Below are positions 936 to 24,800 of a stretch of 29,179 nucleotides of DNA, one piece after another. Each line of letters starts with the position of its first letter. Position 1 is the stretch's first letter. Both the position numbers and the translations under genes were made by a program. Location: assembly GCA_943704415.1 (NCBI GenBank), contig CALSCO010002504.1:1-29179 (forward strand). Direction: 5' to 3'. This DNA is from Parvularia atlantis. Taxonomy: Eukaryota > Opisthokonta > Rotosphaerida. The notes below the pieces were generated by a model. The model ran no database searches. It was given only the letters and a program-made list of their open reading frames with translations, and was not told the DNA's origin.

Positions 936-937
936 AC

Positions 938-3650: not shown

Positions 3651-6600
3651 ATGCACTCGCCGCGGCGCGCGTCCGCCGCCACCGGCAGCGCAAGCCCTGG
3701 CGGCGGCGCCGTGCACTGGTCGACACGCCGCTTCGGCGGCCACTCACCGCTGCCGCGCACGGGCGCGACGGTCGTGCCGCACGGGGCGTCGGTGCGCGAG
3801 ATCTCGCCCCACGCGCGACAGATCCCGCGCCAGTTGTCGCTCACACACCCGCCCAGCTGCTGCTCTTCAGCGGCACCGACGCGGCCGGCAAGCTGCACGG
3901 CGACGTGTGCGAGCTCGCGACGGGTGCGCGCCTCGCGCCCCTGCGACCGCGCGGCCGACCGCGCCGCCACATCGCGCGCAGGCGGCCTCGGCTGGTGGAG
4001 TGCCGTCAACGCGCTCGGCGCGGCCCGCCCGCCCACGCGCGCCCACGCCGCCGTCGCCTCGCACCACGCGCGCTTCTACTGCTTTGGCGGGCGCACGGCC
4101 GACGGCGTGACCGACCGCGCCGTCTACGTGCTCGACAGCTCGCACGGTTCGCGCGCCGCGTTGTGTCTCACCGCCGCCTGCGCCACACTCACGCCGCTGC
4201 TTGCCCAGCAGGCAAGTACATCTGGTCCAAACCGCGCGTCAGCGGCGTCGTGCCGGCCGCGCGCGAGCGCCACACGGCCTGCGCCGTGCGCGACAGCGTC
4301 TTCATCTTTGGCGGCCTCGTCGACGGCACGACGCCGAGCAACGACGCCTTCTTGCTGAGCGCGCGTGCGTAGGCGCCGGCCGTCGCCGCACGTGCGCCTC
4401 ACTCACCGGGCGTGCCCGCGCAGACACGATGCAGTGGACCGCCGTCGCGGCGACAACGAGCCCCCCGCCGCGCGCGGGCCACAGCGCTGCGGCCGTCGGC
4501 GGCGTCGTCTACGTCTTTGGCGGCGCAAGCGCTGCCGACGGCACGGGCGCGCTCGACGATCTGTGGGCGTACCACGTCTCGGGCAGCAAGTGGTGCGCGC
4601 CACGGCGTCGTCCCCGCGGGTGGCTGCTGAGCGCACCGCGCGGCAGGGAGCACGTCGCCCGCGCCACGCCCGACTGGCCGCCCGCGCGCTCGGGCCATGC
4701 GTGCGCCATCGTCGGCACCGACCTGTACGTGCTCGGCGGACGCGGGAGCGACGGGCGCGCGCTCGGCGATTTGTGGGTCTACGCGATTAAGGGTGCGCAA
4801 TGTCGCGGTGTGACTTTGCATCGGCCGGCTCAACGCAACGGCGTGGGTCGCAGCGGGGACATGGCGCAACCTGTCGGCCGTCGCGGGCGCCCTGCAGCCG
4901 CGATGGGACCACTCGCTCTGCCCAGTCAAGACGACGCTGTACGCACTCGGCGGCGTGGCGGACGGCGGCGCGGCGACCGGCGACGAGATCGCCATGCTGG
5001 ACACTGGTAGGGGGTGACCGCGTCGCGCACGGCGCCGCCGCCGACCCGCGCGCACGCAGTCAAGCTGACCGGCCAGGCGAAGGCGGCTGAAGAGGCTGTC
5101 GCAGCCGCAGCGAGTGGCGCAGAGCACGGCGGCGGTGCACTGGGGCTCCTGACGCCGCCAACCGAGACGGCGCTCGGCGGCAGCGGCTCGGGCCTGCTGA
5201 CCTCTTTCAAGCACGTTCTCGCCCCTTCTTCGTGCACTCGCCCATGCCCTGACACTTCTGTGCGCGCGTACACAGGGCCCTGCAGGCACAGTTTGAGGGC
5301 GGCACGGCGGCAGCGGACGCTGGCAAGGTGAGCGGAGTGAGCAAGGAAGGTTGCCGTTGCACTCATGACGAGCGCTCGCACAGAGCCCGGGCAAGACGCC
5401 CTTGCGCGCACGCGATGGTAAGCTCGGCCTGCTCACCGTCGACGCAACGCCGGTCGAGACTGCCGGGCCGGTTGTGCGCGTGAGCGGGCCGGCCTCGTCC
5501 GACGCCGACCGCGAGATCCAGATGCTGCGCGCGTCGCTCAAGGCGGCCGAGCAGTCGCTGGCGCAGGAGGCCGCGGCGAGGTGTGTCCGTTGGCGCGCAG
5601 TCCGCACGGTCCTCATGCCCCGCGCGCGCGCTCGCGCAGGGCCAAGGCGCACGAGCAGCTTTACACCGCCCGGGCCGACCTGCAGCGCGAGCTGGCCGAG
5701 GCTACGGCTGAGCGAGGCACGTCACGACTACACCCTGCACGTCGGTCTGAGCTGCGTGTCACAGAGCGCCTGCAAAAGGTGCTCGCGGAGAAGGAGCGCG
5801 CGCTGATGGAGGCCCGTGAGCTCGCGCAGCAGGAGGCACACTCTGGGCGGCTGCAGGGGTGCGTTGGCCGTGCGCCCTTGCATGCAATAACTGACGCACG
5901 TTTGCAGCCTGGAGCAGGAGAACGCGCTGCTGCGCGACGAGATTGACCGGGCGCGCGCGTTCCTCGCGCAGGCCCTCGAGAGCGAGCAAGCGCTCACGGC
6001 GACGCTCGAGCACGCCCAGACGACCCTGACCAGTGCGCTGGACTCTGTGCTGCGTGACTGCGCGCGCGTCCTCAATCGATTCGCCGGCAGATGCGGACGC
6101 GCCACTGGTGCGCGCGCCGCGTATGGCGACGCTGCCGACGGATCTGCTCGTCACGCAAGAGCAGCTGCGCGAGATGAGCCTGCTGACCGACGCTGCGACG
6201 GGGCACGAGCGGAGCGTGCGTCGTCGAGCGCGCGTGCCATGCCGTGCGCCTCACCGCTCTGTGCCGCAGCCGGCCGAGTGGAAGGCGCGAGCCGACGCGG
6301 CCGAGGCCATGGTCATCGCGCTGCGCACGGACCTCGCGTGCGCGGCCGTCTTGCGCGCAGCGTGCGCGTTGTCACACGGCCGCACACAGCAACGCAAACC
6401 GCGAGCTACAGCAGCTGCGCGAGGAGATCGTCGCCACGCAGCGGCGCGCGCGGCAGCTCGTCGTCAACGTGAACAAGCTTGAGGAGGAGGGCGCATTTCT
6501 GCAGGCGAGGTGCGCCTCCCTGTGTGTGGCCTTCCGGGGACGTGCCTCACACGCGCGCGCACACACCAGCCTCACGCAGGAGCGCGCGCGAAGCAGCGCA

Positions 6601-7940
6601 CTGCGCGAAGCCGTCGGCTACGTTGAAAAGGCCGCCGAGGAGCAGCTGTCGCAGCGGGTGCGTGCATGCGCACGCGGAGTGCGTGGCAGCGCTGAACGCG
6701 TGCACGTGTGCAATAGATCGTCATCGTCGGGCTGAACAAGCAGGTGGACGAGCTGCGCGAGCAGGCAAAGCAGGCAGAGCTGGGTGTGTGAGGGCGGCAC
6801 CGCTGGCGCAGGTGCGCTGACACGTGCGTGCAGACAAGCAGGCCGCGATGGCCGCCGCGGCCAGGCTGGCCGATGCGCAGACGCGCGTCGCGAGCCTCGA
6901 GCAGGCTGAGAGCGCGCTGCGCCAGGAGCTGGCCGGCGTCAGGGAGCAGGCCGAGGCGGACAAGTCGGCGCTGACGGTGCAACTGCAGCGCGCCGAGCTC
7001 AAGCTGCGCCGCACGAGCAGCCAGAGCGCCGGCGACGACCTGCCCAGGTCGGTGCGTGCCCGCAGCCAGCTGCTTCTGCGGCGCGCCTGACATGCTGCGC
7101 GCTCAGGCGCGCGACGACGCGGCGCAGGCCGTGCGCGAGCAGCTGAGCCGGCTGACGGCTGAACTGGCGGCCGAGCGGCAGGCGCAGGCGGAGCGGCTGC
7201 GGCAGGCGCGGGAGCAGGCTGCAGCGGAGGCGCGGCAGGCGCAGGAGCAGCGCGAGGAGGAGTGGGCGAGCGAGCGCGCGTCGCTGCAAGTGCAGCTGCA
7301 GCGCGCTCTGCGCCGCACCAGCTCGGCCAGCCCCAGCTTGCCCTCGCCCGACACGAGGATACAGGAGCTCGAGGGCCGCCTGGCTGCGGCCGAGGCCGAC
7401 AAGGCGGCGCTGCAGCGGCTCGTGGACGAGGCCGCGCGCAGCAGCTCGCAACTGAGCCACCTGCAGAGGACCAACAGCGACCTGACCGAGCGCGTGAGCC
7501 ATCTGCAGCGCCAGCTGAGCCTGCAGTCGCTGCCACCGACGATGCCCACGCGGCGCGTGCGGTTTGCGTCCGAGCGCACGCTCGAGGTCGACGCCGGGCC
7601 GGCGCTCAACGGGGACGTCTCGCACGTCGAGGTCAACCACGACGCGGCGGCCGTCTTCACGCGCGTACAGGCGGCACTGCTGGCCGGTGCGCCTAGTCAC
7701 GCGTGGCATCGCGCGGCTTTGCTCATGGCCGCCGCGCAGAGCGCATCGTCGTGAGCCTGATCGCCAACGTGCAGCGCGACCTCATCGCCGGCTCGGTGGC
7801 CACGAACCCGACGGAGGAGGTGCATGCACCGAGTGTGCCTCGTGCAGGCTGCTGACGGCGCGCGCGCGCGCACGCAGACCGTGGCGACGTGGGTCACCGA
7901 CCGGGTCATGGTGTACGCCAAGATGGAGGCGCTGCGGTGA
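3651..7940 (+). CDS. kelch-propeller and coiled-coil protein (22 exons)
   Basis: Exons: 3651-3791, 3857-3923, 3982-4146, 4212-4364, 4424-4592, 4647-4792, 4854-5006, 5060-5231, 5276-5327, 5384-5580, 5640-5716, 5765-5858, 5908-6053, 6091-6215, 6270-6337, 6390-6509, 6570-6657, 6717-6783, 6834-7051, 7107-7686, 7740-7819, 7878-7940. Together they give 1,046 residues in one frame. Residues about 45-335 hold about six kelch repeats with the usual RxxH...YVFGG...DLWxY signature, forming a beta-propeller. Residues about 435-940 are Glu/Gln/Arg/Leu-rich coiled coil with SLEQENALLRDEI-like heptads. A compact conserved-looking C-terminus follows (VRFASERTLEV...). The layout resembles fission-yeast Tea1-type cell-end proteins and other kelch/coiled-coil scaffolds, but I cannot name an ortholog. 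The intron at 5717-5764 appears to start with GC. The gene ends 93 bp before the convergent MINPP1 gene. Confidence 0.8.
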
Positions 7941-8033
7941 GGCGCCTCGCCGTGCATCTTTTTTTTGTTTTTTCGTTTGCTGTTGTGCTGCTTTGGTTTG
8001 CGGGCGAAGGTGGGACACGGGGGAAGTTTACTG
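7941..8033. terminator. convergent 3' region with T-rich tract
   Basis: The kelch gene (+) and the MINPP1 gene (-) end tail to tail with 93 bases between their stops. The gap includes TTTTTTTTGTTTTTTCG at about 7960-7976, the most T-rich stretch in an otherwise very GC-rich region. It probably holds the 3' end signals of both transcripts. No AATAAA is visible on either strand. Confidence 0.4.
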
Positions 8034-9705
8034 CTAGTTGGGGAGCGCGCACAGCTCGTCAAAGTCGGCCGAAAGGTAGCTGGCGGCCGCTGCGTCAGCG
8101 TCGCCGGGGCAGGCGCCGGCCAGTCGCGCGCGCGGGCGCACCCGCGGTAGGCGTCGACAAACGTTGCGAGAGGACAGTACAGCTGGCCGCCGCAGCCGTC
8201 GACGACGACCTCAAGCTCGTTCTGCAGCACCTTGACCTTGAAGCCGTCGGCGCCGCAGTCGTACAGCACAAAGGCGATGTTGCTGCGTCGACGCGTCACC
8301 ATTGCTGAGCCGGCGAGGTGCCGGTGCGCGCACGCACCTGCCCTTGGGCGAGACCACGCTCGTGCGGAACTTGCGCGCGTCAACGACGTCCTGTGGCGAG
8401 TCGTGCTTGAGCAGGACACTGTCTTTGTACAGCCCCTGTGCGGCCGCCCGTGGTGTGAGCTGCAGCCGCATCGGCGCGTGCATGCGGGCGCGCGGACCAG
8501 GGCCGTGGCCAGCGGCACGATGGTCGACGAGTGCGCGAAGCGGAGGTTGGCGCGCTGCGCCGTCTGGCCGCGTGCGACGCGTAGCATCTCGGCGACGATG
8601 TCCTGCAGCAGCGGCGCGACGATCTTGTAGTTGATCTCGTACGGGTACGCCTTTGTCCAGTAGTCGTCCTGCGCACCGTTGACATTTGTGAAGGTCAGCG
8701 CGGGCGCTCGGTGCGGGAGCGGCCGCACCAGGTCCTCCATGTACTCGATCTGGTTGACCTCGTCCTCCACGAACACGGCGCACCACTTGTCCGCCACGCC
8801 CTCGCGGTTGCCCTCGGACTGGCACGCGGCCCACATCGCCAGCGCGTCGTCCCCGGTCACCTGCCAGCTCTGGTCGACCGTGAGCTGGTCGGTGAGGCGC
8901 TGCGAGATGTTGGGGACGATCATCTCCTGGTACAGCTCCGTCTCGATGTTGGCCGTCTCGTTGTCATTCACGAGCAGGTTGTACAGCGGGCAGTTGTCGT
9001 AGAACTGGGCCGCTGGTGGTCAGCGCGGTCACGGTCACGGGCGGCACGCGCACCTTGAGGATATTGTCCTGCGACTGCGTGTCCGAGAGGATGTAGATCG
9101 GCTCGTAGCCGCTCTGGCCGAGTGAGCCGCGGCCCTCAAACAGGCCGAAGCCGAACGACTCGGCCGAGAGCATCGCGCGCTGCTCCTGCGTCGCGCGGAA
9201 AAAGTAGACATTGCTCTCGTACGGCTGCGCAAACAGGCCCGGGAAGGCGGCCTCGAAGCGGCGCGCCATGTCGTAGTTCTCGCGCCGCCCGATCGGCGCC
9301 AGGTGGCTCTCCTGGGCAAGCGGGATCGGGTTCTTCCACGTGCGCATCCAGGCGTACTCGGGCGCGATCGCGGCGCTGTACTGCGCGAGCTTCTGCTCCA
9401 GGCGCGCAAACTCCTCGATGTCGCCGTCGCTCGGGTTGCGCGTGCCGTGGCGCACGGCCATGTTGAGGTGCGCGGGCGTGCACGCAGGCGGCGCGGGCGT
9501 GTGGTCGGCAAAATCCTGCGGCGCGACAGCGACGGTGCTGTGAGACCCGCACGCCGTTCGCGCGTTCGTCAGCGAGCACAACCTGCAGCGCGTAGTACGC
9601 CGTCTTGGACGCGAGGTGCCGCAGCACGTTGTACGGGCCCTGCGCGTGCGCGCCCGTGGCTGCCGCAAGCACAAGCGCAGCCACGAGAACGGCGGCCGAA
9701 TGCAT
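8034..9705 (-). CDS. MINPP1: multiple inositol polyphosphate phosphatase (histidine phosphatase, clade 2)
   Basis: Exons (minus): 9705-9553, 9515-9048, 9004-8498, 8435-8338, 8282-8142, 8079-8034. They give 470 residues (human MINPP1 is 487). A signal peptide is clear: MHSAAVLVAALVLAAATG, ending in AHAQ. The histidine-phosphatase motif RHGTRNP carries the nucleophilic His and phosphate-binding Arg residues. Later blocks KVRFYDNC, LRFAHSSTIVPL and SNIAFVLYDCG line up in order with MINPP1 RFFDHC, the HAE proton-donor region and the C-terminal FVLYHC strand. The enzyme removes phosphates from InsP6 and related inositol phosphates in the secretory pathway or outside the cell. Two points are odd: HAE is replaced by HSS, and no KDEL-type retention signal follows (the end is CALPN). 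It is divergent with PLRG1, 110 bp between start codons. The donor of intron 2 is ambiguous among three in-frame GTs. Confidence 0.88.
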
Positions 9706-9815
9706 GCTGCAAAGTGAAACCGAGCTGAGACACGAATCGTTGCGCACGCCCTGGCCACGTGCGCATATCTCTACGTCCAGTTGAGCAGCGACAGTTACCG
9801 GCGGTACCCGTGCAG
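9706..9815. promoter_or_regulatory. bidirectional promoter region MINPP1/PLRG1
   Basis: Only 110 bases separate the start codons of two divergently transcribed genes, so both promoters and both 5' UTRs must lie here. No TATA box is evident. The stretch is less GC-rich than the flanking coding sequence. Confidence 0.5.
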
Positions 9816-11984
9816 ATGGCCGCCGCTGCCGTGGAGTCGGCGCGCTCACTGCTGCTCAGCGCGGCCAAGCGCACGCGCGACATGTTCCTCGCGCACTACG
9901 GCGCGCCCGTGCCCGAGGACCCGCCGAGGTGCGCCGCGTGCGCCGCGTGCGCCGCGCGTGCGTGCGCCGTCTGACGCGGCATGGCGCGCGCGAGCAGCCA
10001 GCGGCTCAAGCTGAGCAGCAAGGTCGCGGACGAGTACGCGACGGTGGTCGAGCTGCCGCCGGCCGTCGCCGCGCAGACCGCGCCCAAGCAGCCGGCCGTG
10101 GCACTGGGCCAGCAGCCGCAGGCGTCGGCGCAGTCGGAGACGGGCAAGCTGCTGGACACGATCAAAGTGTACGACGCGCTTTTCGCGTTCTCGTCGACGC
10201 GCGACGGGCTCACCACGGCGGCCTGCCGCAGCCCGGGCGCGCCCGCCAACGCGGCTGGCGGCTCGTCAGCGCTCGTACTGCGCGTGCCCGGTGCGCCGCC
10301 CGTGCCTGCGCCGCTCGGCGGGGCGCTCGTGCTGCGCAACGGCGCCGAGACGTCGCCCCTGGCCGTGGTACCGCTGCGCCAGCCCAACAAAGTGCCCAAG
10401 CCCAAGTGGCACCCGCCGTGGAAGCTCATGCGCGTGCGTGCAGCGCCCGCCGCCCGTGCTGCCGCGCGCACAGCGTCTGACGGGTGGCTGTGCGGCGCGC
10501 AGGTCATCGCGGGTCACCTCGGCTGGGTGCGCTGCGTCGCGGTCGAGCCCGGGAACGAGTGGTTCGTGACCGGCTCGGGCGACAAGACGATCAAGGTGCG
10601 CTCGGGACACGGGCACGCTGCGCTGCGACGTGACGCCCGCGGCCCGCGCAGATTTGGGACCTCGCGAGCGGGACGCTCAAGATCACGCTGACCGGCCACC
10701 TCAACTCTGTCCGCGGCGTCTGCGTGAGGTCTGTCGCGCGTGTGTACATGCATTCGCGAGTGCGCCGTGCTGACGCCGCGTCGACACAGCGACCGCCACC
10801 CGTACATGTTCAGCGTGGGCGACGACAAGCTGGTCAAGTGCTGGGACCTCGAGGTCAACAAGGTCATCCGGCACTACCACGGCCACCTGTCGGGCGTGTA
10901 CACCGCGGCGCTGCACCCGACACTGGACGTGCTCTTCACGGGCGGGCGTGACAGCACCGTGCGGGTGCGCCCGCCGCTCGCTTCGCCGGCGCTCTGTGAC
11001 GCCAGTGCGCGGCCAGGTCTGGGACATCCGCACGAAGCAGAACGTGCACGTAATGACCGGCCACAGCAACACGGTCGCTAGCATCGTCTCGCAGGCCGTG
11101 GCGCCGCAGGTCATCTCGGGCAGGTGAGCGGGTGGCGCGCTCTTGGTCCGTGCAAGCTGTTTGCTCACGCAACACGCAGCATGGACTCAACCGTGCGGCT
11201 GTGGGACCTGGCCGCGGGCAAGGTGCAGACGGTGCTCACGAATCACAAGAAGTCTGTACGCGCGCTCGCGCTCAACCTGAACGAGTGCGTGGGTCGGCTC
11301 TTTGCGCATGCGCTGCGCAGTGTGCTCACCTGATCACGCGCGCTCAGGTACACGTTCGCCTCGGGCGCGCCCGACAACATCAAACAGTGGCGCTGCCCTG
11401 AGGGCACGTTCCTGCAGAACCTCTCGGGCCACAACGCGATCATCAACACGCTCGCGATCAACGCCGACGACGTCGTCTTCTCGGGCGGTGCGTGCCTGCT
11501 GCTGCGATTGTCCCCTTGCGCTCATGCACACGCACAGCCGACAACGGCAGCATGTGCTTCTGGGACTACAAGTCGGGCTACAACTTCCAGCGCACCGAGA
11601 CGATCGTGCAGCCGGTGCGCGGCCTCGTGCAAACTGCCTGCGCGCGGCGGCTCACCGCTTGCGGCCACGTCCAGGGCTCGCTCGACTCGGAGCAGGGCAT
11701 TTTCGCCTCGGCCTTTGACCGCTCGGGGTCGCGCCTGATCACGTGCGAGGCCGACAAGTCGATCAAGATTTGGCGGGTGCGTTGCGGGCGCGCGGCGGGC
11801 GCAGTGATGCTAACGGAAAGGCCCGCCTGCGCACCTCCCCCGGCGGGGAGCAGGAGGACGACTCAGCGGTGCGTGCTCGCGCGGTTTGCGGCGGGGCTGA
11901 CGGCGGGGCTGACGCGCGCGCATGCAGACCGAGGAGACGCACCCGATAGAGTTTAAGGCGATGCTGCGCAAGTCGAGATGGTGA
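9816..11984 (+). CDS. PLRG1: pleiotropic regulator 1 / Prp46 (spliceosomal NTC WD40 protein)
   Basis: Exons: 9816-9928, 9998-10433, 10503-10595, 10652-10728, 10790-10964, 11017-11123, 11180-11284, 11348-11487, 11538-11614, 11675-11776, 11854-11868, 11928-11984. They give 498 residues. The N-terminus ([10 protein letters not shown]...GAPVP) matches the PLRG1 SLKRTHDMF...GKPVP block, and [11 protein letters not shown] precedes the propeller exactly as in animals. Seven WD40 repeats follow (about residues 190-480), with near-identical stretches such as [18 protein letters not shown] and [15 protein letters not shown]. The tail [10 protein letters not shown] matches TEETHPVSWK. PLRG1 is a core Prp19/CDC5L complex subunit needed for spliceosome activation. 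A 15-nt microexon encodes EDDSA. Intron 1 has a GAGCAG tandem acceptor and a repeated gtgcgccgc unit near its donor. Confidence 0.97.
11854..11868 (+). other. PLRG1: 15-nt microexon of PLRG1
   Basis: The five codons GAG GAC GAC TCA GCG (EDDSA) are bounded by an acceptor (gggagcag) and a donor (gtgcgt). They supply exactly the residues that human PLRG1 has between the last WD repeat and TEETHP (EDDTA). Skipping it would keep the frame but remove the conserved acidic link. Confidence 0.85.
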
Positions 11985-12206: not shown

Positions 12207-14717
12207 ATGTACACGCGTGCATTGCGCGCGTCGCTGGCGGTGCGCTCGGCCGCGGCGCGCGCCCTGAGCACGGCGCCGGCCGTGGCGACGCGCGAGCGCA
12301 GACACGGGTGCGTGGCGTGCTCGCGTGTGCGGCCGCGCGCGATGACGCTGACCGCGCACGTGGCGCAGGCCGAGACAGCGCGCCGGCGCGGCAGCGGTCG
12401 CGGCTGCTGCTGCTGCTGCTGCGGCGGCGGCGGCGGCGGCGGCGTGGGCCGGCCAGCAGCAGCTGCTCGGCGACGCCCCGCCGGTCGCGGGTGACGGCAG
12501 CAGCCTCAGCGGCGGGCAGCCGCCGCGCCAGAGCGAGTTCCGCGCGGCGCTCCTGCGGAACGACCTCGCGGCTCTGACCACGTGCGCCCGCTACTGCTGC
12601 TGCAGCTGCTGCAGCTGCTGCTGCTCCGGGTGGCGCTGACGGGCGCGCGGCACGCAGCATGAGCCAACAGGCCGAATTTGTGGGCGTGAACGCGCGCTCG
12701 GCGCTCGGCTGGTGCCCCGTGCACTTTGCCGCAATGACCGGCAACCTGCCGATGCTGCAGCTCCTCGTGCGCATGGGCGCCGACGTCAACGCGCGCGACG
12801 AGCACGACCAGTACCGCCTCTCGGTCACCGACTACTTTGCCGAGCACGGGCGTATCCTCACCGCCGACCAGGCGCGCCAGATGTTTGTGAGCCCCGAGGG
12901 CGCGCGTGTTCCCTCGCTCGGCGCAACGCCGCTGCACTACGCCGTGCTGACGCGCAGCGAGGTGCGTCCGATGCACGTGCACGCGGCCGGTGCTGACCCG
13001 CACGCGCGCACTGCCAGCCGGTCGTGCGCTTCCTGGTCGAGCAGGGCGCCGACCCGACCATCACCGACCGGAGCGGCCACACTGCGCTCGATCTGGCCGC
13101 GCCCGAGACGGCGCAGGTGTTCGGGCCTGTGATCGATAAGGCGCGCGCGGCGTACCTGCAGTCGCAGCGCGAGCGCGAGCGTGAGCTGCGGCGCAAATGT
13201 GCGTGTGCTGCCGCCGGCAGTCTATGCGCGGCTGAGGCGGTACATGCGCGCACAGACCCGCTCGAGGATGTGCTCAAGCGCAACATTGTCGGGCAGCTCG
13301 GCCCGATCCAGTCAGTCGCCGCGGCCATTCGGCGCCGCCAGAACGGCTGGCAGGACACGGATCACCCGCTCGTCTTCCTCTTCCTCGGCTCGTCGGGCAT
13401 CGGCAAGACCGAACTGGCCAAGCAGATGGCGGCGTACCTGCACCCCAACAACCCGAACGTGCGTAGCACGCACCGTTTGCTTGCTCACGGGCGCACTCAC
13501 CACGTGCGGGACAGGGCTTCGTTCGCATCGACATGAGCGAGTACCAGGAGAAGCACGAGGTCGCCAAGTTCATCGGTGCACGCTGCTGCTACACATGCGC
13601 GCTTGTGCTCACCGCACACGCAGGCTCGCCGCCCGGCTACGTCGGCCACGAGAGCGGCGGCCAGCTGACCGAGCGCCTGCGCGCGTGTCCGAACGCGGTC
13701 GTGCTGCTGGACGAGGTCGAGAAGGTGTGCGCCGTGCTCCACCGACCGCACGGCTGCGCTCACTGCACGGCCGCAGGCGCACCCGGACGTGCTGACGATC
13801 ATGTTGCAGCTGTTTGACGAGGGCCGGCTAACGGACGGCAAGGCGCGGCCGCCCGCTCGCTGATCACCATGCGCGACCGACGGCTGACGCGCGCTGCGGC
13901 AGGGCCAGACGATCATCTGCAAGGACGCCATCTTTGTGATGACATCGGTGCGGCGCGTGTGCCTGGCGGGAAGTGCTGTGACTCACGTGGGCGCTCGCAC
14001 GGCTCAGAACCTTGCCCAGCGCGAAATCGGCGACGAAGGCCAGGGCCTGCGCGAGCAGGCCGAGCGCCAGGCCGGGCTCACCGGCGTCCCGACGGATGAG
14101 AGTGAGACGTAACGCGCGCGCCGCTCTTCGCTCAGGGGTCTGACGCGACGCACCCGCAGCGACGGCGCTGTCAAAGCTGTTTGTCGACGACGTCGTGCTG
14201 CCGATCCTCAGCCGCCACTTCCGGCGCGATGAGTTTATCGGGCGCATCAACGAGATCCTGTTCTTCCTCCCGTTCGACCAGGCCGAGAAGATCGCGATTG
14301 CGCGCCGTGAGCTGCAGCTCTGGCAGAAGCAGGTGCCGCGCTGCTCCTTCGCCGCCAGACAGCACGCAGCCTGATCGCTGCTTCCTTGCAGGCCAGCGAC
14401 CGCCACGGCATCACGCTCACGTGGGACGACGCCGTGCTCGACAACATCATCCGCGGCTACAACATGCGCTACGGCGCGCGCTGGATCAAGCACGAAGGCA
14501 CGGCGCAGCACGCTCGCATGCACACACGGCCTGACGCGCACGCGCGCGCGGGGCAGTCGAGAAGCGCATCATCAACCAAGTGGCCAGGGCGCACGAGCTC
14601 GACCAAGTCACGGCCGGCGGCAAGGTGCACGTCGGCGTCGACGACCAGGGCAAGATCGTGATCAAGTGCACGCCGGGCGAGGCCCCTGCGCCGAAGAAGC
14701 GCAGCTTCCTCTTTTGA
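12207..14717 (+). CDS. CLPB: mitochondrial ankyrin-AAA+ disaggregase CLPB (Skd3 type)
   Basis: Exons: 12207-12307, 12369-12581, 12658-12961, 13018-13198, 13256-13458, 13515-13575, 13624-13724, 13777-13842, 13903-13947, 14008-14101, 14160-14332, 14392-14497, 14557-14717. They give 602 residues. The N-terminus [20 protein letters not shown] is a textbook mitochondrial presequence (Arg/Ala, no acid). A poly-Ala tract follows, then ankyrin repeats (about 100-250; e.g. [20 protein letters not shown]), then one AAA+ module. The module has Walker [10 protein letters not shown] (Lys317), pore loop GYVG and Walker B VVLLDE (Glu385). The end is the Clp D2-small domain with [17 protein letters not shown]. 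Order and sequence follow human CLPB, which disaggregates proteins in the mitochondrial intermembrane space. Two introns, 13843-13902 and 14498-14556, seem to have GC donors; neither contains any GT. The gene converges on PPP1R21 with 48 bp between stops. Confidence 0.96.
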
Positions 14718-14765: not shown

Positions 14766-17700
14766 TCAGCTGCGCACGCGTCGCGGGCTCGGGTTGGAAC
14801 CCGCGCCGCCCGAAGCGGCCGGCCGGGCGCTCGTGGCGGCGGACGATCGCCGGTCGAGCTCTTCCTGCTGCAGTGGCCGTGAGCGGCACCGTCACGGCGC
14901 ACCCTGCGCGTGTCTCGCGCTCACCTGCGCCGTCAACTGGCTGTTGAGCGTGAAGATGTGCTCGGTCATCATCGTCAGCTGTGACGAGTAGTTCTTCTCG
15001 GTTGTCGCGAGCTTGTCCTGCGGACGCACGGCTCAGCGTGCTGTTGCGGTCGCCCGCGCCGCCGCACCTGGATGTCGACCACCTCCTGGTTGGCCTTGCG
15101 CAGAGCGCTTTCGAGGCGCGCGCGCTCGGCCGCCGACAGCTCCAAGTCAGTTCGGGTCTTGTCGAGGAGCGACTTGTAGCGCTGTGCCGAGCCATCGGCA
15201 CGCTGGAGCTGCGCGCGCGTGTGCGCGCAACGCCGCGTCAGCCGATGCCACCTCTGCGTCAGGCCCGACCGCACCTGCACGTTGAGCTGCTGAATCTTCG
15301 TCTCAAAGTGCTTCTTGATCATGCTCTCGCGCATGGTCTGGTCGCGCGGCACGGGCACGAACGGCTGCGAGACCACCACCGCGCGTCAGTCGAACACAAG
15401 CAAATCACTGCAAGCACCGCACATAGGTTGCGCCGTCGATCGTGTCCGTCACGACGATGGACGACTCGCGCTCGGCCGCGGTGCCATTGACGTGCGGCTG
15501 ACTGCGCGCGCGCTGTGCGTCTGCGCCCGGCCGCGACATGAGCCCCCTGCACCCTGAGCGGCGGGGCACGGGCACCTGACGTCGTGCGCCGGTCCTTGGC
15601 CGAGGCTGACGAAGCGGCGCGCAAGCTGAGAATGTCGGCGAGGTAGTGCTGCGCACGCGCGTGTACGTCCACGTGAGGCACGCTCACGCGTCCGGTGCGC
15701 GCGCGGACCTCCGCCTCGTCGACCGCGCCGGCGTCGGCATCCGTCTTGTCTTGGGTGTCAGGCTGTGTCGACGCGAGCAGGTCTGCCCACGCGCGCGATG
15801 CGCCCTCGATCGGCGCGGACCCTGCCAGTGCGCGCGAGATTGTGAGTGTTCGTTCACGCGCCTGTGCGCTTCACGGACGCACCTCCGCTGACCGAGGACG
15901 ACGACGACGCCTGCACGAGCGGCTCGTCCATCAGGCTCGTCAGGCCGCCGCCGCTCACAGGCGCTGCAGGCGCGGCCGGTGCTGGGGAACTCGCGGCGGG
16001 CTCGCTCCACGACAGGTCGAGCAGGTGTTCGATGGAGCCTGTCTCGACAGCCGACCGCAGGGGCGACGACGGCGGCTCGGTGACGACGACAGCGGCAGCA
16101 AGCGGCGCGGCGACAGGCGGCGAGCTGACGAACGCGACGTCGCCCCAGACCGCAAAGTCGTCACCCGCACGGCCCTTGGCCACCAGTGGCGTAATGTCTG
16201 CAGGCTCGGCGGCCGCACCAGAGTCGCCCGAGACGATCTTGCCGCTGTCTAGTGCCGACACAGGCGCCGAGTCGGCTTCGGGCGCGGTGCTCGTTGCGCT
16301 CTCCTGCGCCGTCTCTGCGGTGACCTGCTTGAGCTGCCGCACGGCCAGCGTGAGCCGAATCGAGCATGTGCCGACACGCGCCCACGACGTGCCTGCTGCC
16401 GCAGCGACTTGAGGTCGGCCTGCACGGTGTGCCGCTGCCGCTCGAGCAGCGCCAGCTGCGCGTCCTTCTGCGCCTGGGCGGCGCGCAGGTCCGACAGCTG
16501 CGCCTGCATCTCGCGCAGCTGCTTATCCTGTGCATCGCGCGCTCAGCACCAACCACGCCGGGCACGAACCGGCGCGGCATGCCTGCGTCGCAACCAGCGC
16601 GTGCTGCCGCGCGGCGTCCTCGCGTGCCGCCGCTACCTCGCCCTGCATCTGCACAAGGGCACGGTGGCTGTCGGCCTTGATCGCACCGAGCTGCGCCGTC
16701 AGCCGGTCGCGCTCGCTCGTCAGCGTTGCGGCCGTCGTCTGCCGCACGACGTTGGCATCGCAAAAGAGCAGCTGACGGCGACGCACCAGCGCCGCCGAGT
16801 GCTCCGCCTGTAACTTGCGCAGCTGCGCCTCGACCTGCGCCACCGCCACCTTGTGCTCGGCAGCTTTGGCCTGGTGGATCGTCTGCTCCAGCAGCAGGTC
16901 CTCCTTCTGCTGCTCGACGATCTTGAGCCGGTCTGTGAAGGGACGCCGTGGTGAGCCGCCCATGCAGCGCGCCGCAATGCGCGCGGCACACCCGTCAGCA
17001 TCTGGATGCGCTTCGTCAGGTCGGCGTGGTCACGCGTCACCAACTCGCGCTCCTGGCGCATGCGCAGCGCATCCTCGTACGGCACCGACTCGGCCGGTGG
17101 CTGGCCAGGGCGCGCGCGGGCGGGGATTTCAGCACACACCGCAAGCACTAGTCGCACACTCCGCACCATCGCCCCAAGCAGCGTCATGTACTTGCGCGCG
17201 CGCTCCTCCATGCGTGCGAGCAGTGGCGCCACGGCCGCCGTGTCGAGCGCGCTGACGGGCACGCCGTGCGCCCAGGTCTTGGTCGTGCGCGCGAGGATGA
17301 GCGTCACCGTGTGCTCGACCAACGCGCGGAGCGGTGCTGCGTCGGCAGTGCGTGAGAGGCCCGCCGATGCGGTGTCGCGAGACACACGCAGCGCGGCGGC
17401 CAGCGTCCCGATCGCGAGCACGATCTGGTCGTTGGTCGAGCGGTTCTCGGCCGAGAGGCTGGCCAGGTGGCGGTTCTCGTGCGTGAGCTTGGACGAGGTC
17501 TGGAGCGAAAACTCTGCAAGCGAGCGGTGCCGTCAGCGGACGCCACGCAGGCCCTGTGCGTGCAGAGCACACCCTTGGCGACCCTCGCTAGGGCGTCGTA
17601 CAGCGCCCAGGACGGCGCGTCGACGAGCTGCCGGCAAAGGACGGCCATCTTGCCGAGCGACTCGACCATGAGCGCGTTGCGCGCCTTGGTCGCGGGCGAG

Positions 17701-19399
17701 CACTGCTCGGCGTCCGACTCCTGCGCGGGGCCTCAGCGTGAGCTGCCACGTCGACGGCGCAGCGACAGACCTCCTGCAGGGCGCGACTTTGCAGCGTCGC
17801 CAGCTGCTCCAGGTGGGCAAAGAGCCGGGTCGCCGCGGCCGCACTCGCGCTGTAGACGGCCTGAGGGCTCCTGAGCGTAGACCCTGCTGCCGCCGTCAGA
17901 CGGCGCGACCGCGGGGGGCGCGCTCTCCGTCCACGCCACCTTCCGCCCCGCCGCGCAGGAATCGGTCGACGTCGCGCTGCAGCTGCACGAAGTCGTCGGT
18001 GCGCCCGAGCGCGTCGTACAGCTGTGCGCGGCAGTTTGAGCGCGGTACCACTGCCGCGCGGTCGCGGCGCGCACCTCGACGCTGACCGGGCTCATGGTCA
18101 CGTCGCTCGACGCCTCCATCAGCCGCCCGAGCTTGACGCGCGAGGCGTCCTGGTACGTCCTGAGCGAGGTCGCGACCTGCTGCCACTGGAACATGGTCTT
18201 GCGGATGGCCTCGAGCACCTCGTACTGCGCCGCGCACGTGAGGCCCGCAGTCGCGCGTCTGTTGTCGAGCGTGCCTGCGACTCGACATCAAACGGCGGCA
18301 GGTTGAGGCAGTTGTACGCGGGCAGGAGCGTGTCGTTGAACGGGATGCGCTCGCCGATCGTCCGGTTGGCCGCGACCAGCTCCGTCTCGAGCTGCACCGA
18401 CTGGTCGCGCAGCTTGGTGACGGTGTCCTTGGCCTGCTCGACGGTTCTACGTGGACCGGGCGCGCGTCGGCGCCTCTCGCTGCTGTCGCAGCGGCGCAGG
18501 GCCGCGCACCTCATCAGCATCTGGCGCGTCTCGTCGAGCTGCTGCTCGGCCGTCTTCTGCTGCGTCTGCGCTTCCTCGAGCCGGCGCATCAGCTCGGCGA
18601 CCTTCTTGCGTCCCGTCGCCTGCGACCTCGCGGCTGCTGAGACTGTGCGTGCGTGGGCGTACGAGCTGGTTGGCGCGTCACCTCGCTATCGATCAGCTGC
18701 GCGCGCAGATTGGCCAGCTCCTCCTCGAGCCGACGCGTGGTCTGCGCGTGCTCGCGCCGCATGTCGGCGATGGTCGAGTGCAGTGTCTCTGCGGCACCGG
18801 GCGGACGGGTGAGCGCCAGGGGCGACCCCGCGCCGCGTCACGCACCGTTCTCGGCGATCTTGGCGTTGAGGTCGTCGGCCGTGGCCTGCAGCGCCTCCTT
18901 CGACTGCAGCAGCTCCTTCTTGCTGCCGCCACCGCCGAGCCACGACGACGAGCGCTCGGCCTTCTGCGCACACGGCCGCGCGCGCGTCGGCAGGCCGCGT
19001 CGGCGCGTCGCCGCGTGTGCGCCCCGCGCACCACGGCAGTGATCTCGGCCTGCAGCTGCGTCGTCAGTTTGGTCAGGCGCTCCTGGTGGAACGTGAGCAA
19101 GTCCATGTCCTGCGCTTGCTGCGGCACGGCGGCGGCCGCGGCGGTGGTCAGCGGCGGCGGGCGTGAGGAGCAGAGGCGCGTGCCTTGCGCAGCTGCTGAT
19201 CCTTCGTCTTGACCGTGTTCTCGAGCGCCGCCTGCTGCTCCTGCGTCGTGAGGATGCCCTTGCGCAGCACCGAGTTTTGCGCCTTGAGCGTCGTGTACTC
19301 CTGCGCCAGCCGCTGGTACTTGTCGACCAGCGCCGCGTGGGCCGCGGTCGACGTCGCCAACGGCGGCGAGCCAACGTCGTTTGGTGACGGTGACGACAT
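14766..19399 (-). CDS. PPP1R21: PPP1R21 (KLRAQ-domain) ortholog, early-endosome coiled-coil protein
   Basis: Exons (minus): 19399-19184, 19118-19032, 18963-18846, 18788-18682, 18619-18510, 18446-18275, 18224-18075, 18021-17935, 17860-17771, 17720-17573, 17513-16992, 16932-16595, 16527-16393, 16333-15883, 15821-15709, 15648-15581, 15501-15423, 15364-15275, 15208-15068, 15017-14925, 14867-14766. They give about 1,138 residues (human 780). Landmarks in the human order: YQRLAQEYTTLKAQNSVLRK near the N-terminus (the KLRAQ block), GERIPFNDTLLPAYNCLN, ESVPYEDAL, ESMIKKHFETKIQQLNVQ and TTEKNYSSQLTMMTEHIF near the end. Most of the rest is coiled coil. An Ala/Ser/Pro-rich insert (exon 14, about 150 residues) accounts for much of the extra length. 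In animals PPP1R21 is a subunit of the FERRY complex, a Rab5 effector linking mRNA to early endosomes, and also binds PP1. At least two introns (19119-19183, 16334-16392) look GC-AG. An in-frame 39-nt stretch in exon 11 (about 17101-17139) may be another intron. Confidence 0.9.
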
Positions 19400-19488
19400 T
19401 CGACTTGAAGTGCAAGGACGGCAGGCCTATCTGGTGGCCCGCTCACGCGCACGCGCGCGCCGCTACGGTCTTGCTGTTGTGCGGCGGC

Positions 19489-20870
19489 TCACGCAAAAAA
19501 CACGACAAAGACGATGAAGAACAGGATGACGACGCCAAAGACCTTGAGCATGAGCGCGCGGTTGGACCCGATCCCCTGCAGGTACTTGAGCAGCTGCTTC
19601 TGCGCCGCGTCGACGTTGTGCTCGATGTCGTCCACGTTGGCGTCGATGCTGCATCGCGCGCAGCCAGTCAGCCACGGCACGCCAGCCGCGCACACCGGCG
19701 CTCGCACCGCTGGATCTGCTCGCCCTGCTCCGCGACCAGCGTCGCCAGCTGCTGGAAGATGGTCCCGAGCTGCGCAATCGTCGACTCGATGTTCTGGATT
19801 TCCTCCAGTCGGCTCTCGCTGTACGTGTCCTGCGGCTGGGAGTGAGCACGCGGAGCCAGGAGCATGCGCGGCGCGCCCCGTGCCTGCTGCGGCGTCATCG
19901 TCATCTGCAGCTGTTGCCCGGACGCGGGCCCGAGGTCGATCGCGACGTAGTCGGACGCCGGCGTGGCCGCGGCAGCGCCCGCGCCACCGCCCGGCTTCTC
20001 GGGCCGCCGGTACAGCGCCGAGGTCGCTGAGCCGTTGGGGGCCTTGGCCGATGCCGCAGGCACGAGCGCACCCGTCCCGGCCGAGAACTGCTCGCGGCGG
20101 TCCTTCTGCGACTTCATGTTCTGCGTGCGACACCGCGACGGTCAGCATGAGGCGGCAGGCACGCGCGGCGGGTGTGCGCGGCGTGCCTGCGTGCGCAGCT
20201 CGAGCACGTCCTTGAACACGTTGGACGTGCTCGCGAGGCGCGACTGGAGCGAGATGACGACGCTGTTGGAGTGGTCGTCGGCCTGCTTGGACGCCGCGCC
20301 CTGGCCCTTTTGGCGCACCATGAGCAGGCGCAGGCGGTCTGCCAGCGGCGTTAGCTAACAGCCGCCACGCACGCCGGCCGCGCACCGATGTTCTGGTTGA
20401 GCGCGGCCAGGTCCTGTTTCACGATGTACGTCAACTCCTGGATCTCGACCGGCCGGTCGTCAAAGAGCGACTTCTTCTTGACGACTGCGCCGCCGTGTGC
20501 GCGCAGCGCAAGACTTCGTCAGTGCCACGCGTGCACAGGCCCGCCCGCTGCGCCGCCCACGCCGCAGCCCCCCCCCCCCCGCCGGGCCACGCACGCTTCG
20601 TCAGCTTCTCCAGCTTGGCCACGGTCCCGTTCAGCTCGCGGCCGATGGCCGCCGCGGCCCGCGCGAACTCGGAGCGCGGGTTGAGCGGTCGGCGCCGGTC
20701 TTGGACGGCGCGTGCGAGCGCGTGTCGTCAGCCGAGCGGTGCGCACACGCGGGCAAGCAGCAGCAGTCGCACGCACCGGCACCGCCCGACACGGCCGCGA
20801 CGGCCAGCGGCGACTGGCGCGCGCGCGCGGCCTCGACGATGGCGAGGAACTCGGCCGTGCGGTCGCGCAT
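19489..20870 (-). CDS. STX5: syntaxin-5 / Sed5 Qa-SNARE
   Basis: Exons (minus): 20870-20777, 20699-20595, 20484-20386, 20338-20187, 20120-19708, 19648-19489. They give 340 residues, or 324 if the probable 48-nt intron 19836-19883 is removed (human 355). The start MRDRTAEF matches the conserved syntaxin-5 CRDRTQEF, which fixes the ATG. Habc-region blocks KKKSLFDDRPVEIQELTY and SNSVVISLQSRLA follow, then the DRREQFS linker and the Qa-SNARE helix (IQNIESTIAQLGTIFQQLA...EQIQRID). A C-terminal anchor (VFGVVILFFIVFVVFFA) ends the protein. Sed5/STX5 drives ER-Golgi and intra-Golgi fusion. The intron 20121-20186 appears to use CAG|GCACGC, and the intron 20485-20594 carries a run of 13 C on the plus strand. 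Its start lies 29 bp from the divergent RS gene, and its end 89 bp before the PPP1R21 start. Confidence 0.96.
20568..20580. repeat. 13-nt homopolymer C run in a STX5 intron
   Basis: A run of thirteen C on the plus strand (G on the coding strand) lies within the second STX5 intron. Its length may be unreliable in assembly but it does not touch coding sequence. Confidence 0.8.
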
Positions 20871-20899
20871 TGTCTGTGTATGCCTGGAATTGTGCAACC
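20871..20899. promoter_or_regulatory. 29-bp head-to-head spacer between STX5 and the RS-protein gene
   Basis: The STX5 ATG (minus, 20870-20868) and the RS-protein ATG (plus, 20900, context caaccATGGc) leave only 29 bases, which include gtatgcctggaattgtgc. Transcription of each gene must start inside the other gene's transcribed region, or the mRNAs must have almost no leader. Both starts look well fixed, the STX5 one by homology. Confidence 0.6.
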
Positions 20900-20992
20900 A
20901 TGGCTACGCGCGGTAGATCACAGAGCAGGTCGCCGCCGTCGGCACGGCGCAGCCGCTCGCCGAGCAGCGACAGCAGCAGCGACAGCGGCGAC

Positions 20993-21027
<35 letters not shown>

Positions 21028-21709
21028 CAGCAGCAGCAGCCGCAACTTGAGCCGCAGCCGCCCGAGCGCCGAGAAAGGTGTGCCGAATGACCCACTTCTT
21101 CAAAGCGCCCGCGCTTACGCCAACGCCGCTGCGCGCTCCCGGCCACGCCGACCGCGCCCGCGCCCGTGCCGCCGCCTCGTGACGCACCCGCCGCACGAGC
21201 GCGCCCAGCCGGGTCAGCCGGGCCTGCCGCGGCGCCCGGGCGAGAGGACGACGAGCGGCGCGACCGCGAGCGCGACCGCGCACGGGACCGCGCGGCCGGC
21301 GAGCGGGCGCCCGAGCGCGAGCCCGAGCAGGACAAGAGCAAGAAGAAGCGCAAGAAGGACAAGGTCACGAGCAAGGACAAGAAGGAGCGCAAGAAGGACA
21401 AGAAAAAGGTTGGCGCGGCCGGATTGACGCGCGCGGCCGGCCGCTGGCTCACGATGCGCGCGCGCGCGCGCACGCGCACGCACACGCACACGCACAACAG
21501 AAGCACAAGAAGCGTAGCTCGCGCAGCCCCGAGGTGCGATCGCAGCGTCCGCGCGCCGACTGCCGGCTGCTGCTGACCGCGCGCAGGAGCTGCGCAGCTC
21601 GATCACCGGCCGGCGCATCAAGCTCAAGGTCAAGAAGACATCCAAGGACAAGGAGCGCGACGCCAACCGGCGCGACCTGCTGCAGTTCCTCAACAGCATG
21701 TACCAGTGA
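20900..21709 (+). CDS. small RS-rich, lysine-rich nuclear protein with conserved-looking C-terminus
   Basis: Exons: 20900-21077, 21209-21408, 21501-21533, 21587-21709. They give 177 residues. The N-terminus is an Arg/Ser-Asp/Ser low-complexity domain (RSQSRSPPSARRSRSPS, then SD repeats). A charged helix rich in RER/KKKRKKD follows. The last 41 residues are quite different and look folded: ITGRRIKLKVKKTSKDKERD, then ANRRDLLQFLNSMYQ. RS domains of this sort occur in splicing and mRNA-export factors, so a nuclear RNA role is likely, but I cannot name the family. The stop TGA at 21707-21709 overlaps a good donor (gtgagg), and the next ATG (MED12) is 45 bases on. Exon 2 could start at either of two nearby AGs. 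Confidence 0.65.
20965..21044 (+). repeat. AGC/GAC trinucleotide-hexanucleotide repeat coding for Ser-Asp tract
   Basis: Tandem AGCGAC and AGC units encode (SD)n/(S)n in the RS protein. The pattern is imperfect and in frame, so length changes would only alter the tract length. Confidence 0.8.
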
Positions 21710-21754
21710 GGCGTGGGGGAGATGTGTACACACGGCGATTGAGCTTTGCAGGAC

Positions 21755-21859
21755 ATGGACGGGCAGTGGCACGCGGCGCAGCCGCCGGGGCGAGCGCCGG
21801 GACGGCAGCAGCAGCAGGCGCAGCAGCAGGCGCACCAGCAGTACCAGCAACAGCAACAA

Positions 21860-21896
<37 letters not shown>

Positions 21897-24800
21897 CACG
21901 GGCCATGCGCGGGACGGTGCGCGCGCAAACAGCCCCGTTGCACGGGCATCACGCAAACCCGCGCGCGCAAGCAGAGCGACCCGCTGTCGGTCATCGCGCA
22001 CCTGCAGCAGCAGCAGTACCAACAGCAGCAGCAAATGTACCAGCGCGCTGCGGCCGGGCAGCCCGTCGCCGCTACGAGGCACGTCGCTCGCTGACGTCCG
22101 CCGCGCGCTCGTGAACTCGCGTGCTGCGCAGTGGCGCAAACACCCTTCCCGCCGCCGCGCAGCTGCTGCAGTCGCGCATGATGCGGCCGCAGCACGTGCC
22201 CGTCGCCGGCCGCCCCGGCACGGTGCTGCTGGGCCAGCCGGCGGGCACGCTCGCGCAACTGCCGCAGCAGCCCGTGCCGCCGACGCTGGCGCAGCAGCCG
22301 CCGCCACAGCAGCAAACGCCGCAGCAGCAAACGCCGGGCGGGCAGCCGTCACAGACCCTCATCAAGTACGAGCTCACGCCGCCGCCCAGCCGCCAGCTGC
22401 ACAAAAACGCGGCGCACGGCTACACCGACTTTTACCCGCAGCAGCGCGACCAGAAGGAGGACGACATGAGCAAGGCCAACGTGCGGCGGCCGACCGCGCA
22501 CAATCGCAGGATCGTTCGCTCACGCGCCGCGCAGATCGAGATTGGCTACAAGTCCGACCCGGTCGTGCTCGAGCTCAGCTCGTACGCGCGCGAGATGCTC
22601 AACCGGCCGCTGGGCGACCTGAGCGTGCGCCTGGGTGACTTCCTCACGAGCGTCATGTACCAGCACGACGAGGCCGCGCGCGTCCCGCCGCTCGGCCGGC
22701 CCTTCCAAGCGCCCGTGCGCGACACGAATGCGCAGCTCGAGAAGAAGCAGGCGCTCGTGGCCGACCTGTGCGGCAACGAGCCGCTCAGCTCGATCCTTGC
22801 CAAGCGTATCCCGCACGGGCTCAAGGTGCGCCGCGATGCCTCCCACGGCGGCAGCCGCATGCAGCTGACGCGGCCCGTCTGCAGGACGCGGTACTGCTTG
22901 ACGTGCTAGTGAAGAACAACGTGCCGATCCAGCGCGCGTCGTGGCTGATCAAGGTCCGTCGCGCCCGCGCCAACCATCGTGCCGTGGCTCACGCCGCGCA
23001 GATCGTCAACCTCGACACGCCGCTCGTCGCCGCATCGGGCGAGACGCACTGCTCGCGCTGGACGGCCACGCTCCTGTCGTACCTCAAGACGCTCCTGACC
23101 GACATCAGCCGCGTGCCCGTCGGCAGCGACCCGTTCACCAAGGCACGCGTCGATGATGCACACTGCGCGTCCTGACCGTGCGCGCCAGGCCAACTGGAAC
23201 TACAGCATTCGCCTGCTGCAGTGGCAGTACTCGGACGGCCTGCTGGAGATGCCGCGCGTGCTGCGCTGGATCGTGACAGAGCTCAAGTGCGTGTCCCCCC
23301 CTCCCTCACGCGGCTCGCGCACGCCCGACGACTGATCGCGTGATCGCGTGCGCCGGGCATGTGCCCAGGCTCGTCACGCTTGAGAACATCGGCCTGATCG
23401 TGCCCGTCGTGTGCCTGTTCTTCACCGACATCTGCGCGCACAAGATGCTCGCCAGGTGCGCCTTGGGCGTTGTCGCGCACACGCGGCCACTGACGCGCAC
23501 CAGCGAGCTCGCGGACGTGTGCCTCGTCAAGATCACGCGCTTCCGCAAGTACGGCATGACGACCGAGGTGCGCCGCGCCACGCGCGTTTGGCACTCGTGC
23601 GCCTGAACACCCCGTTGCTGCAGATCCAGGCGTACAACATGGTCACGGCTGACGGCCCGCCGCTGATGAAGGTCTACTACCACACGCTCCTGGCCTTTGT
23701 GCAGGGCGTTGTCCTCCTGTGCCCGCAAGGTGCGCGCCGCAGCCCCGCGTCGCACCGTCAGCCTCCGCCCACCCCTGGACGCGCACGTGCGCACGCCAGC
23801 CATGCAGGTCCACGCGAACGAGGAGCGCCACCGCCGCCTGCTGGCCGAGCTGGCGGCCGGGCAAGACGACGACGGCGACCTGTCGGGCGAGCTGCTCCTG
23901 CCGCCCGTGCTCGCCTACATGTCGCTGCTGCAGGACCGCTTCCGGCGTGTACTGCGCATGCACGACCTTAGCCTGCGGCACGGCACCAGCGCGGCCGCCG
24001 AGCTGCAGCAGCCGCCCGAATGGTTCGACGTGCTGCAACTCGATCGGCTGAGCGCGACCAACTACGCCCTGCCCGCGACACTCACGATGGTTAGCGAGCG
24101 CGGCGTTGCGCACGTGCTCGCCTGGGCCGTCGCCATCGATCGCAGCGACCCCTTCCGCCCCTACACGGCCGCCTCGGTGCTGCACGGCATGATGCAGGCG
24201 GCGCTGCAGGCCGTCGCACAGCCATTGGATGTCGCGCAGGGCAGCAGCCGCGGCACCCCGCTGGACCTGTTCACCCACGCGGCCACGCCCGGCTTTCTGC
24301 CGCAGACGCCGGCCTCGCAGCGCGCGTCGTCGGTGGCCGTGGTCCGGCCGCACGCGTCACCGACAGCGCCGCCCATGGCCGTCTTCATGAGCGCAGCGCC
24401 GAGCCCGGTCGCACCTGGAGCTGCAGCGGCGGGCGAGCCGCAGGGCGCGCTGACAACGCGCGCGGGCGTGATGGCGCAGCTGCAGAACAGCCTCATGGCG
24501 TTCCTGGACACGTATGACTGGCTGCAACTGCCGCCGGAGCAGCATGCACGTCTGCGCAGCGCCGAGCGTTCCCCCGCGCGCTGACGCTTCGCCCCGCTCA
24601 ACGCAGGCACGCGCGGTGGCCAACGTCGCCCACGTCTTCCGCGTGCTCATGGCCCGCCGCCTGTTCTCGTACGATCGCTTCGTCGAGCGCCTGATCGCGC
24701 GCGACGATCTGCACGCAGACAACCTGCCCTCGGCCGTGCGTCGTTCCGGCACGCACGCACCCGGGAGGCTCACTCTGCGCGCGGCAGCGCTCGCAACGCC

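What the first reader, a model, noticed from the sequence alone, without database searches (positions are those of the whole stretch)
5717..24606. Abundant GC-AG introns with their own donor consensus, GCACGY
In at least eight introns only a GC donor restores the conserved reading frame: kelch 5717-5764; CLPB 13843-13902 and 14498-14556; PPP1R21 19119-19183 and 16334-16392; STX5 20121-20186; MED12 22079-22131 and 24546-24606. Three more are probable (PPP1R21 18225-18274, STX5 19836-19883, MED12 23143-23188). The two CLPB introns contain no GT at all. That is about 8-11 of about 105 introns, far above the roughly 1% usual in animals. The GC donors read GCACGT, GCACGC or GCACGG in all cases but one (GCGCGG), usually after AAG or CAG. 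GT donors in the same genes are mostly GTGCGT/GTGCGC. So +2C goes with +3A, and +2T with +3G, as if two donor classes exist.
Basis: partly seen in the sequence, partly recalled or inferred. Interest (0 to 1): 0.78.

Follow-up and report, generated by a model that had tools for sequence, protein, structure and literature searches.

The report
Common GC-AG introns in Nuclearia
In this GC-rich amoeba, a relative of fungi, roughly 5 to 8 of every hundred introns start with GC instead of the usual GT; such introns are known from other GC-rich genomes, and here they seem to be tolerated where the rest of the splice signals are stronger.

Summary
The GC-donor introns are real. A gene finder trained on 226 kb of the same assembly, given a donor class without sequence preference, found GCACG as that class's commonest donor (12 seen, 0.37 expected). 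A test that ignores reading frame gives 7.9% GC donors. Genome-wide, AG|GCACG introns give 836 pattern matches against 17 reversed. Both CLPB GC junctions are spliced as predicted in a EukProt Nuclearia 'Unigene', apparently a transcript.

'Two donor classes' holds only in part. Genome-wide, GC donors with +3G are about as common as with +3A. The +3G of GT donors matches the T-A avoidance seen inside introns; GC donors carry a real preference for +3A (3.8-fold, or 2.8 without background subtraction). GCACG donors need AG before the cut, and GC donors prefer the branch site CTGAC (56%, 72%, 83% for GT-G, GC-A, GC-G). U1 and U2 have canonical pairing regions.

Best reading: ordinary U2-type GC-AG introns, made common by GC-rich composition and tolerated through compensation. 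High GC-AG fractions are published for GC-rich algae; my one search for GC-AG with Nuclearia found no paper.

The parts
13843..13902 (+). CLPB GC-AG intron, AAG|GCGCGG..CTGAC..CAG|GGC, no GT inside
   Evidence: spliced protein identical to Nuclearia Unigene P0001 across the junction
14498..14556 (+). CLPB GC-AG intron, AAG|GCACGG..CTGAC..CAG|TCG, no GT inside
   Evidence: spliced protein identical to Nuclearia Unigene P0001 across the junction
20121..20186 (-). STX5 GC-AG intron, CAG|GCACGC, CTGAC branch site
   Evidence: junction RTQ|N between conserved columns; not in the preference-free list
19836..19883 (-). STX5 GC-AG intron, CAG|GCACGG; acceptor 19836 or 19830
19119..19183 (-). PPP1R21 GC-AG intron, AAG|GCACGC, inside the KLRAQ domain; no branch-site word found
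18225..18274 (-). PPP1R21 GC-AG intron, CAG|GCACGC, CTCAC branch site
16334..16392 (-). PPP1R21 GC-AG intron, CAG|GCACGT, CTCAC branch site
22079..22131 (+). GC-AG intron of the MED12 gene (N-terminal low-complexity part), GAG|GCACGT; no branch-site word found
   Evidence: not in the preference-free list
23143..23188 (+). MED12 GC-AG intron, AAG|GCACGC, CTGAC branch site
   Evidence: gene identified by Pfam Med12
24546..24606 (+). MED12 GC-AG intron, CAT|GCACGT, CTGAC branch site; least certain donor (no AG before the cut)
5717..5764 (+). kelch/coiled-coil gene GC-AG intron, GAG|GCACGT, CTGAG branch site
   Evidence: (donor placed 9 bases upstream)

Best explanation
These are ordinary U2-type GC-AG introns of a nucleariid amoeba (Nuclearia). 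Sustained pressure towards G and C turns T into C at donor position +2. Such donors lose the pair with A7 of a canonical U1 RNA and survive mainly where other contacts compensate: AG at the exon end (with +1G, three pairs with U1), A rather than G at +3, and a branch site with G rather than C before the branch A (CTGAC), which can pair with U2 GUAGUA by wobble. GT donors need less help, so they drift to GTGCG, the form that the local composition favours. Shown: the introns, their frequency, the AG requirement of GCACG donors, the +3A excess, the branch-site gradient, the U1 and U2 sequences, and for CLPB the spliced protein in an apparently transcript-derived set. Inferred: that GC-biased mutation is the cause and that pairing strength is the selected quantity; the U1 and U2 pairing rules are established knowledge, not tested here.
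For: Preference-free donor class finds GCACG 12 vs 0.37 expected. Frame-independent test, AG before the cut: GCACG 17 vs 1.25 shifted control, GCGCG 12 vs 3.75, GTACG 0 of 22 sites; GCACG without AG 43 vs 52.7, no excess. Genome-wide matches, reversed-pattern control in brackets: GCACG 836 (17), GTACG 154 (16), GTGCG 3966 (19), GCGCG 968 (54). CLPB Unigene identical across both GC junctions. U1 5' end AUACUUACCUGG; U2 GTAGTA. CTGAC share, by subtracting the CTCAC counts: 55.6% (GT-G), 72.0% (GC-A), 83.0% (GC-G); chi-square p about 1e-62. GT donors with AG before the cut have less +6T (29 of 184) than the others (232 of 616), a trade-off expected of U1 pairing. GC of the 226 kb is 69.5%; precedents at similar GC in PMC3033335 (passages).
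Against: A nearest-neighbour U1 duplex calculation gives GCACG and GCGCG donors the same energy (-3.0 kcal/mol in one context), so it does not explain +3A, and observed GC donors are not stronger than AG-prefixed GT donors with +2 set to C (p = 0.13). In the 226 kb the branch-site shift is significant for CTGAC against all others (p = 0.0005) but not for CTGAC against CTCAC alone (p = 0.09). GCGCG without AG shows an excess (133 vs 107.7), perhaps from GCGCG runs inside GT introns, so the AG requirement is not shown for GC-G; AG|GC followed by any three bases has a net of only 6.7 (54 vs 47.3). In the equal-weight dinucleotide run GC was 11 of 79 non-GT introns, hardly above AC, AA and TT with 9 each. 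No reads were mapped; RNA-level evidence covers 2 junctions of one gene. Micromonas RCC299 has 2.7% GC-AG at 64.1% GC (PMC3033335), and in mammals GC-donor accumulation was found not to depend strongly on composition (PMC2490688, passage). Human GC-AG introns have weaker, not stronger, acceptors overall (PMC7242645, passage).
Confidence: 0.8

Rival explanations
1. Two donor classes recognised by different machinery: a second U1 RNA or a class-specific U1 protein reads GCACG, so +2 and +3 change together.
For: Odds ratio between +2 and +3 of 22 to 32, above the 3.5 to 7.3 from composition; GC introns differ in phase, prefix and branch site.
Against: One U1 match in the genome search, with the canonical 5' end; GC donors with +3G are about as common as with +3A; GT-side preference fits composition. 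The U1 search scored 41 of 149 candidates, so divergent copies are not excluded; U1 proteins (LUC7, U1C) were not examined.
Confidence: 0.1
2. The GC donors are errors of sequence or of frame reasoning: the true donors are nearby GT sites, or the C is a base-calling error.
For: Five of the 11 introns have GT at their fifth base or within the first eight (5717, 16334, 22079, 24546, 23143); AGGCGCGTGCG sites overlap a possible GTGCG donor four bases on. My gene finder does make errors: its CLPB model has a spurious short intron at the C-terminus that the Unigene lacks.
Against: Two introns contain no GT and are spliced as predicted in a Unigene; hundreds of genome-wide matches with the right branch-site spacing; the signal appears in a test that ignores frame.
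Confidence: 0.03
3. The +2/+3 link is entirely a by-product of TpA avoidance and GC-rich composition, with no splicing selection on +3.
For: GT donors fit the intron-interior TGCG:TACG ratio (p = 0.62); interior odds ratio 7.3.
Against: GC donors have 3.8 times (raw counts 2.8 times) more A at +3 relative to G than interior CACG:CGCG predicts (p about 1e-43 with net counts).
Confidence: 0.07

Closest known systems
GC-AG introns of GC-rich algae (Aureococcus anophagefferens 39.6%, Micromonas pusilla 22.2%, Chlorella sp. 7.7%: PMC3033335, passages; Emiliania huxleyi 56-65%: PMC4028052, passages)
   Same: High genomic GC (about 65-70%) with a GC-AG fraction far above 1%, AG acceptor kept
   Different: Here a nucleariid, related to fungi, about 5-8%, short introns (GT median 56 bases), and a measured dependence on prefix, +3 and branch site
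Human GC-AG introns (PMC2490688, passages; PMC7242645, passages; Thanaraj and Clark 2001 and Kralovicova 2011 seen only as citations)
   Same: The rest of the donor adheres more closely to the consensus when +2 is C, read as compensation
   Different: Fraction 0.8% in human protein-coding genes (3.0% in lncRNAs); human GT donors often have +3A (recalled), here nearly all have +3G; human GC-AG acceptors are weaker overall
Non-GT introns of dinoflagellates and Amoebophrya (PMC7789003, passages)
   Same: Large non-GT fraction
   Different: In Amoebophrya many donor types; here AG|GA and AG|AT show no excess (28 vs 31.0 and 15 vs 20.0)

Membership tests
U2-type GC-AG intron | GC at the donor and AG at the acceptor, with the spliced frame conserved | tested here: met
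   11 of 11 listed introns have the dinucleotides; frame conserved in proteins for 2 CLPB, 2 STX5 and 1 PPP1R21 junctions
U2-type GC-AG intron | U1-complementary exon end and a U2-type branch site near the acceptor | tested here: met
U2-type GC-AG intron | Spliced in RNA by the major spliceosome | tested here: inconclusive
   Apparently transcript-derived protein for 2 junctions; spliceosome type not testable; U1, U6 and U2 genes present
U12-type intron | RTATCCTT donor and TTCCTTAAC branch site (recalled) | tested here: not met
   None of the 11 donors reads RTATCC; the 8 branch sites found are CTGAC/CTCAC/CTGAG
GC-AG expansion of GC-rich genomes | GC-AG share well above 1% with genomic GC of about 65% or more | tested here: met
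   4.9% to 7.9% at 69.5% GC, over 226 kb of 16.25 Mb

The most novel reading that the evidence does not exclude
Probability: 0.45. Interest if true: 0.6.

Novelty: new member of a known kind. Interest (0 to 1): 0.42.

Why it matters
It adds a lineage close to the origin of fungi to those with common GC-AG introns, offers on the order of a thousand natural GC donors in which the cost of a +2 mismatch can be measured, and warns that GT-only gene prediction will break many genes in this genome.

Tried and rejected
Unsupervised re-estimation of a GC-donor class ran away (GC share 0.108 to 0.287 while genes fell from 63 to 43) and was discarded. A run with all other dinucleotides at equal weight did not single out GC (11 of 79 non-GT introns, AC, AA and TT 9 each); its scoring rewards rare A/T-containing dinucleotides, so I set it aside. 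CpG decay as origin of the TG/CA pair: rejected, CpG is not depleted (observed/expected 1.29). A U1 with altered 5' end: the one U1 match is canonical. PPP1R21 search at E 1e-20 found nothing; the STX5 search's 120 listed rows name no Nuclearia. Background fractions for one search came from the shifted controls, small numbers; for GTACG I scaled 0.25 to 18 of 154 by hand.
Full report
What the window is. The window is contig C603 of a 16.25 Mb, 616-contig assembly. The CLPB protein predicted here matches a EukProt entry 'Unigene8260_Nuclearia_a' at 100% identity over 89% of the query, so the organism is a Nuclearia, an opisthokont amoeba of the order Rotosphaerida. The name format (Unigene, m., g., ORF) looks like a transcriptome assembly; this is an inference from the name. 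Pfam confirms Med12, SNARE/Syntaxin-5, KLRAQ (PPP1R21) and the CLPB domains.

Are the introns real? I fetched 197 kb from four other contigs, and with the window built a 226 kb set, 1.4% of the assembly. A gene finder was started from the codon use of one intronless gene and a hand-set GT donor, and trained on the set itself. GT donors read G at +3 in 89%, C at +4 in 86%, G at +5 in 90%. I then added a donor class with no sequence preference. Of 930 introns, 63 used it; 28 of these began with GC (10.1 expected from dinucleotide frequency), 9 with CG (9.8), 7 with CT (3.3); the commonest pentamer was GCACG, 12 against 0.37 expected. A conservative run with a GC class favouring AG before the cut and CG at +4/+5, +3 left free, called all 11 donors.

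A second test ignores reading frame. A donor word should be followed by CTGAC or CTCAC after 22-38 bases and CAG 9-23 bases further. With AG before the cut and CG at +4/+5: GTGCG 45 (2.0 with the branch site shifted away), GCACG 17 (1.25), GCGCG 12 (3.75), GTACG 0 (0.25); GA, GG, AT, CT, TT, CC and AC donors show no clear excess (seven of the 14 other dinucleotides tested). Net counts give AG|GC[AG]CG as 24 of 302, 7.9%, all GT donors included. GCACG without AG shows no excess (43 against 52.7), but GCGCG without AG does (133 against 107.7), perhaps because GT introns often hold GCGCG runs; and AG|GC with any three following bases nets only 6.7 (54 against 47.3). So the AG requirement is shown for GCACG only. 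The strict gene-finder count is 44 of 892 introns of 40-90 bases, 4.9%; 48 others were neither GT nor strict GC, and 68 of 960 introns lay outside the length range.

Genome-wide counts of the same pattern, both strands, with the reversed pattern as control: GTGCG 3966 (19), GCACG 836 (17), GCGCG 968 (54), GTACG 154 (16). Matches with several CAG ends count more than once, so p-values from these counts are somewhat optimistic, and the shifted control suggests a larger background (about 30%, from 12 matches) for GCGCG than the reversed control does.

RNA and protein support. The Unigene protein P0001 contains LTDGK|GQTII and KHE|VEKR, the two CLPB GC junctions; K305, G306 and V445 beside them are invariant among the 8 homologues aligned. 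By inspection, shifting either boundary gives no other pair with an AG end. In STX5, junction 20121 (RTQ|N) lies between invariant columns; 19836 lies just before the invariant D and Y, with a variable left side. The weakest of the 11 is 24546, whose donor follows CAT.

Is there a second donor class? The +2/+3 odds ratio is 22 raw and about 32 after background subtraction. The proper null is the same bases inside introns: CACG 170, CGCG 560, TACG 12, TGCG 288, odds ratio 7.3; over the whole sequence, where the base before is not G, 3.5. Against the intron interior, GT donors show no preference at +3 between A and G (p = 0.62, low power), GC donors 3.8-fold more A with net counts, 2.8-fold with raw counts.

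How GC donors are tolerated. U1 begins AUACUUACCUGG and U2 carries GTAGTA: both canonical. A +2C opposes A7 of U1 (established pairing). Compensation is seen at three places: the AG prefix; +3A; and the branch site. CTCAC makes up 1760 of 3966 GT-G, 234 of 836 GC-A and 165 of 968 GC-G matches, so the CTGAC share rises 55.6, 72.0, 83.0% (chi-square p about 1e-62). From known U2 pairing, G before the branch A can form a wobble pair and C cannot. GT donors show a similar trade-off (AG prefix goes with less +6T). In the 226 kb the branch-site shift is weaker (p = 0.0005 for CTGAC against the rest, 0.09 for CTGAC against CTCAC). A duplex-energy calculation did not reproduce the +3A preference, and observed GC donors were not stronger than AG-prefixed GT donors with +2 set to C (p = 0.13), so the energy step is inference.

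GC introns are nearly all phase 0 (40 of 44, against 358 of 800 GT introns), which follows largely from the AG prefix: AG-prefixed GT introns are phase 0 in 144 of 184 (difference p = 0.06).

What is known. Averages are about 1% GC-AG (PMC7072748, passages). High fractions at high genomic GC are published for Aureococcus, Micromonas pusilla and Chlorella (PMC3033335, passages) and Emiliania huxleyi (PMC4028052, passages), and closer adherence to the consensus around GC for mammals (PMC2490688, passages). Against a purely compositional cause, Micromonas RCC299 has 2.7% at 64.1% GC (PMC3033335), and GC-donor accumulation in mammals did not depend strongly on composition (PMC2490688). A search for GC-AG with Nuclearia found no paper. 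The finding is therefore a new member of a known kind, with a clearer picture of compensation, including a branch-site gradient that I did not meet in the passages I read; Kralovicova 2011, whose title speaks of compensatory signals at human GC sites, could not be read.

Noticed in passing
L006:1501-1662 (G000:C142:8820-8981): The only U6 snRNA match found (47 of 492 candidates scored) has an insert of about 48 bases right after ACAGAGAAGATTA, flanked by GTTGC repeats and holding a hairpin; by inspection no GT- or GC-to-AG boundary restores the usual U6 sequence.
   Followed up: partly
window and 226 kb set, GT introns: GT donors carry C at +4 in 86% (GTGCG), a mismatch to canonical U1.
   Followed up: partly
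window 293-1991, minus strand: Low-score model with a weak integrase-core (rve) match, 26.9 bits, below Pfam's cut-off of 32.6; perhaps a retroelement remnant.
   Followed up: no
window 16528-16582, minus strand: A further possible GC-AG intron in PPP1R21 with donor CAG|GCATGC, called by the conservative gene finder.
   Followed up: no
window, about 28569-28605: Long GT dinucleotide repeat between the MED12 gene and a gene that looks like a PP2C-type phosphatase (resemblance recalled, not tested).
   Followed up: no
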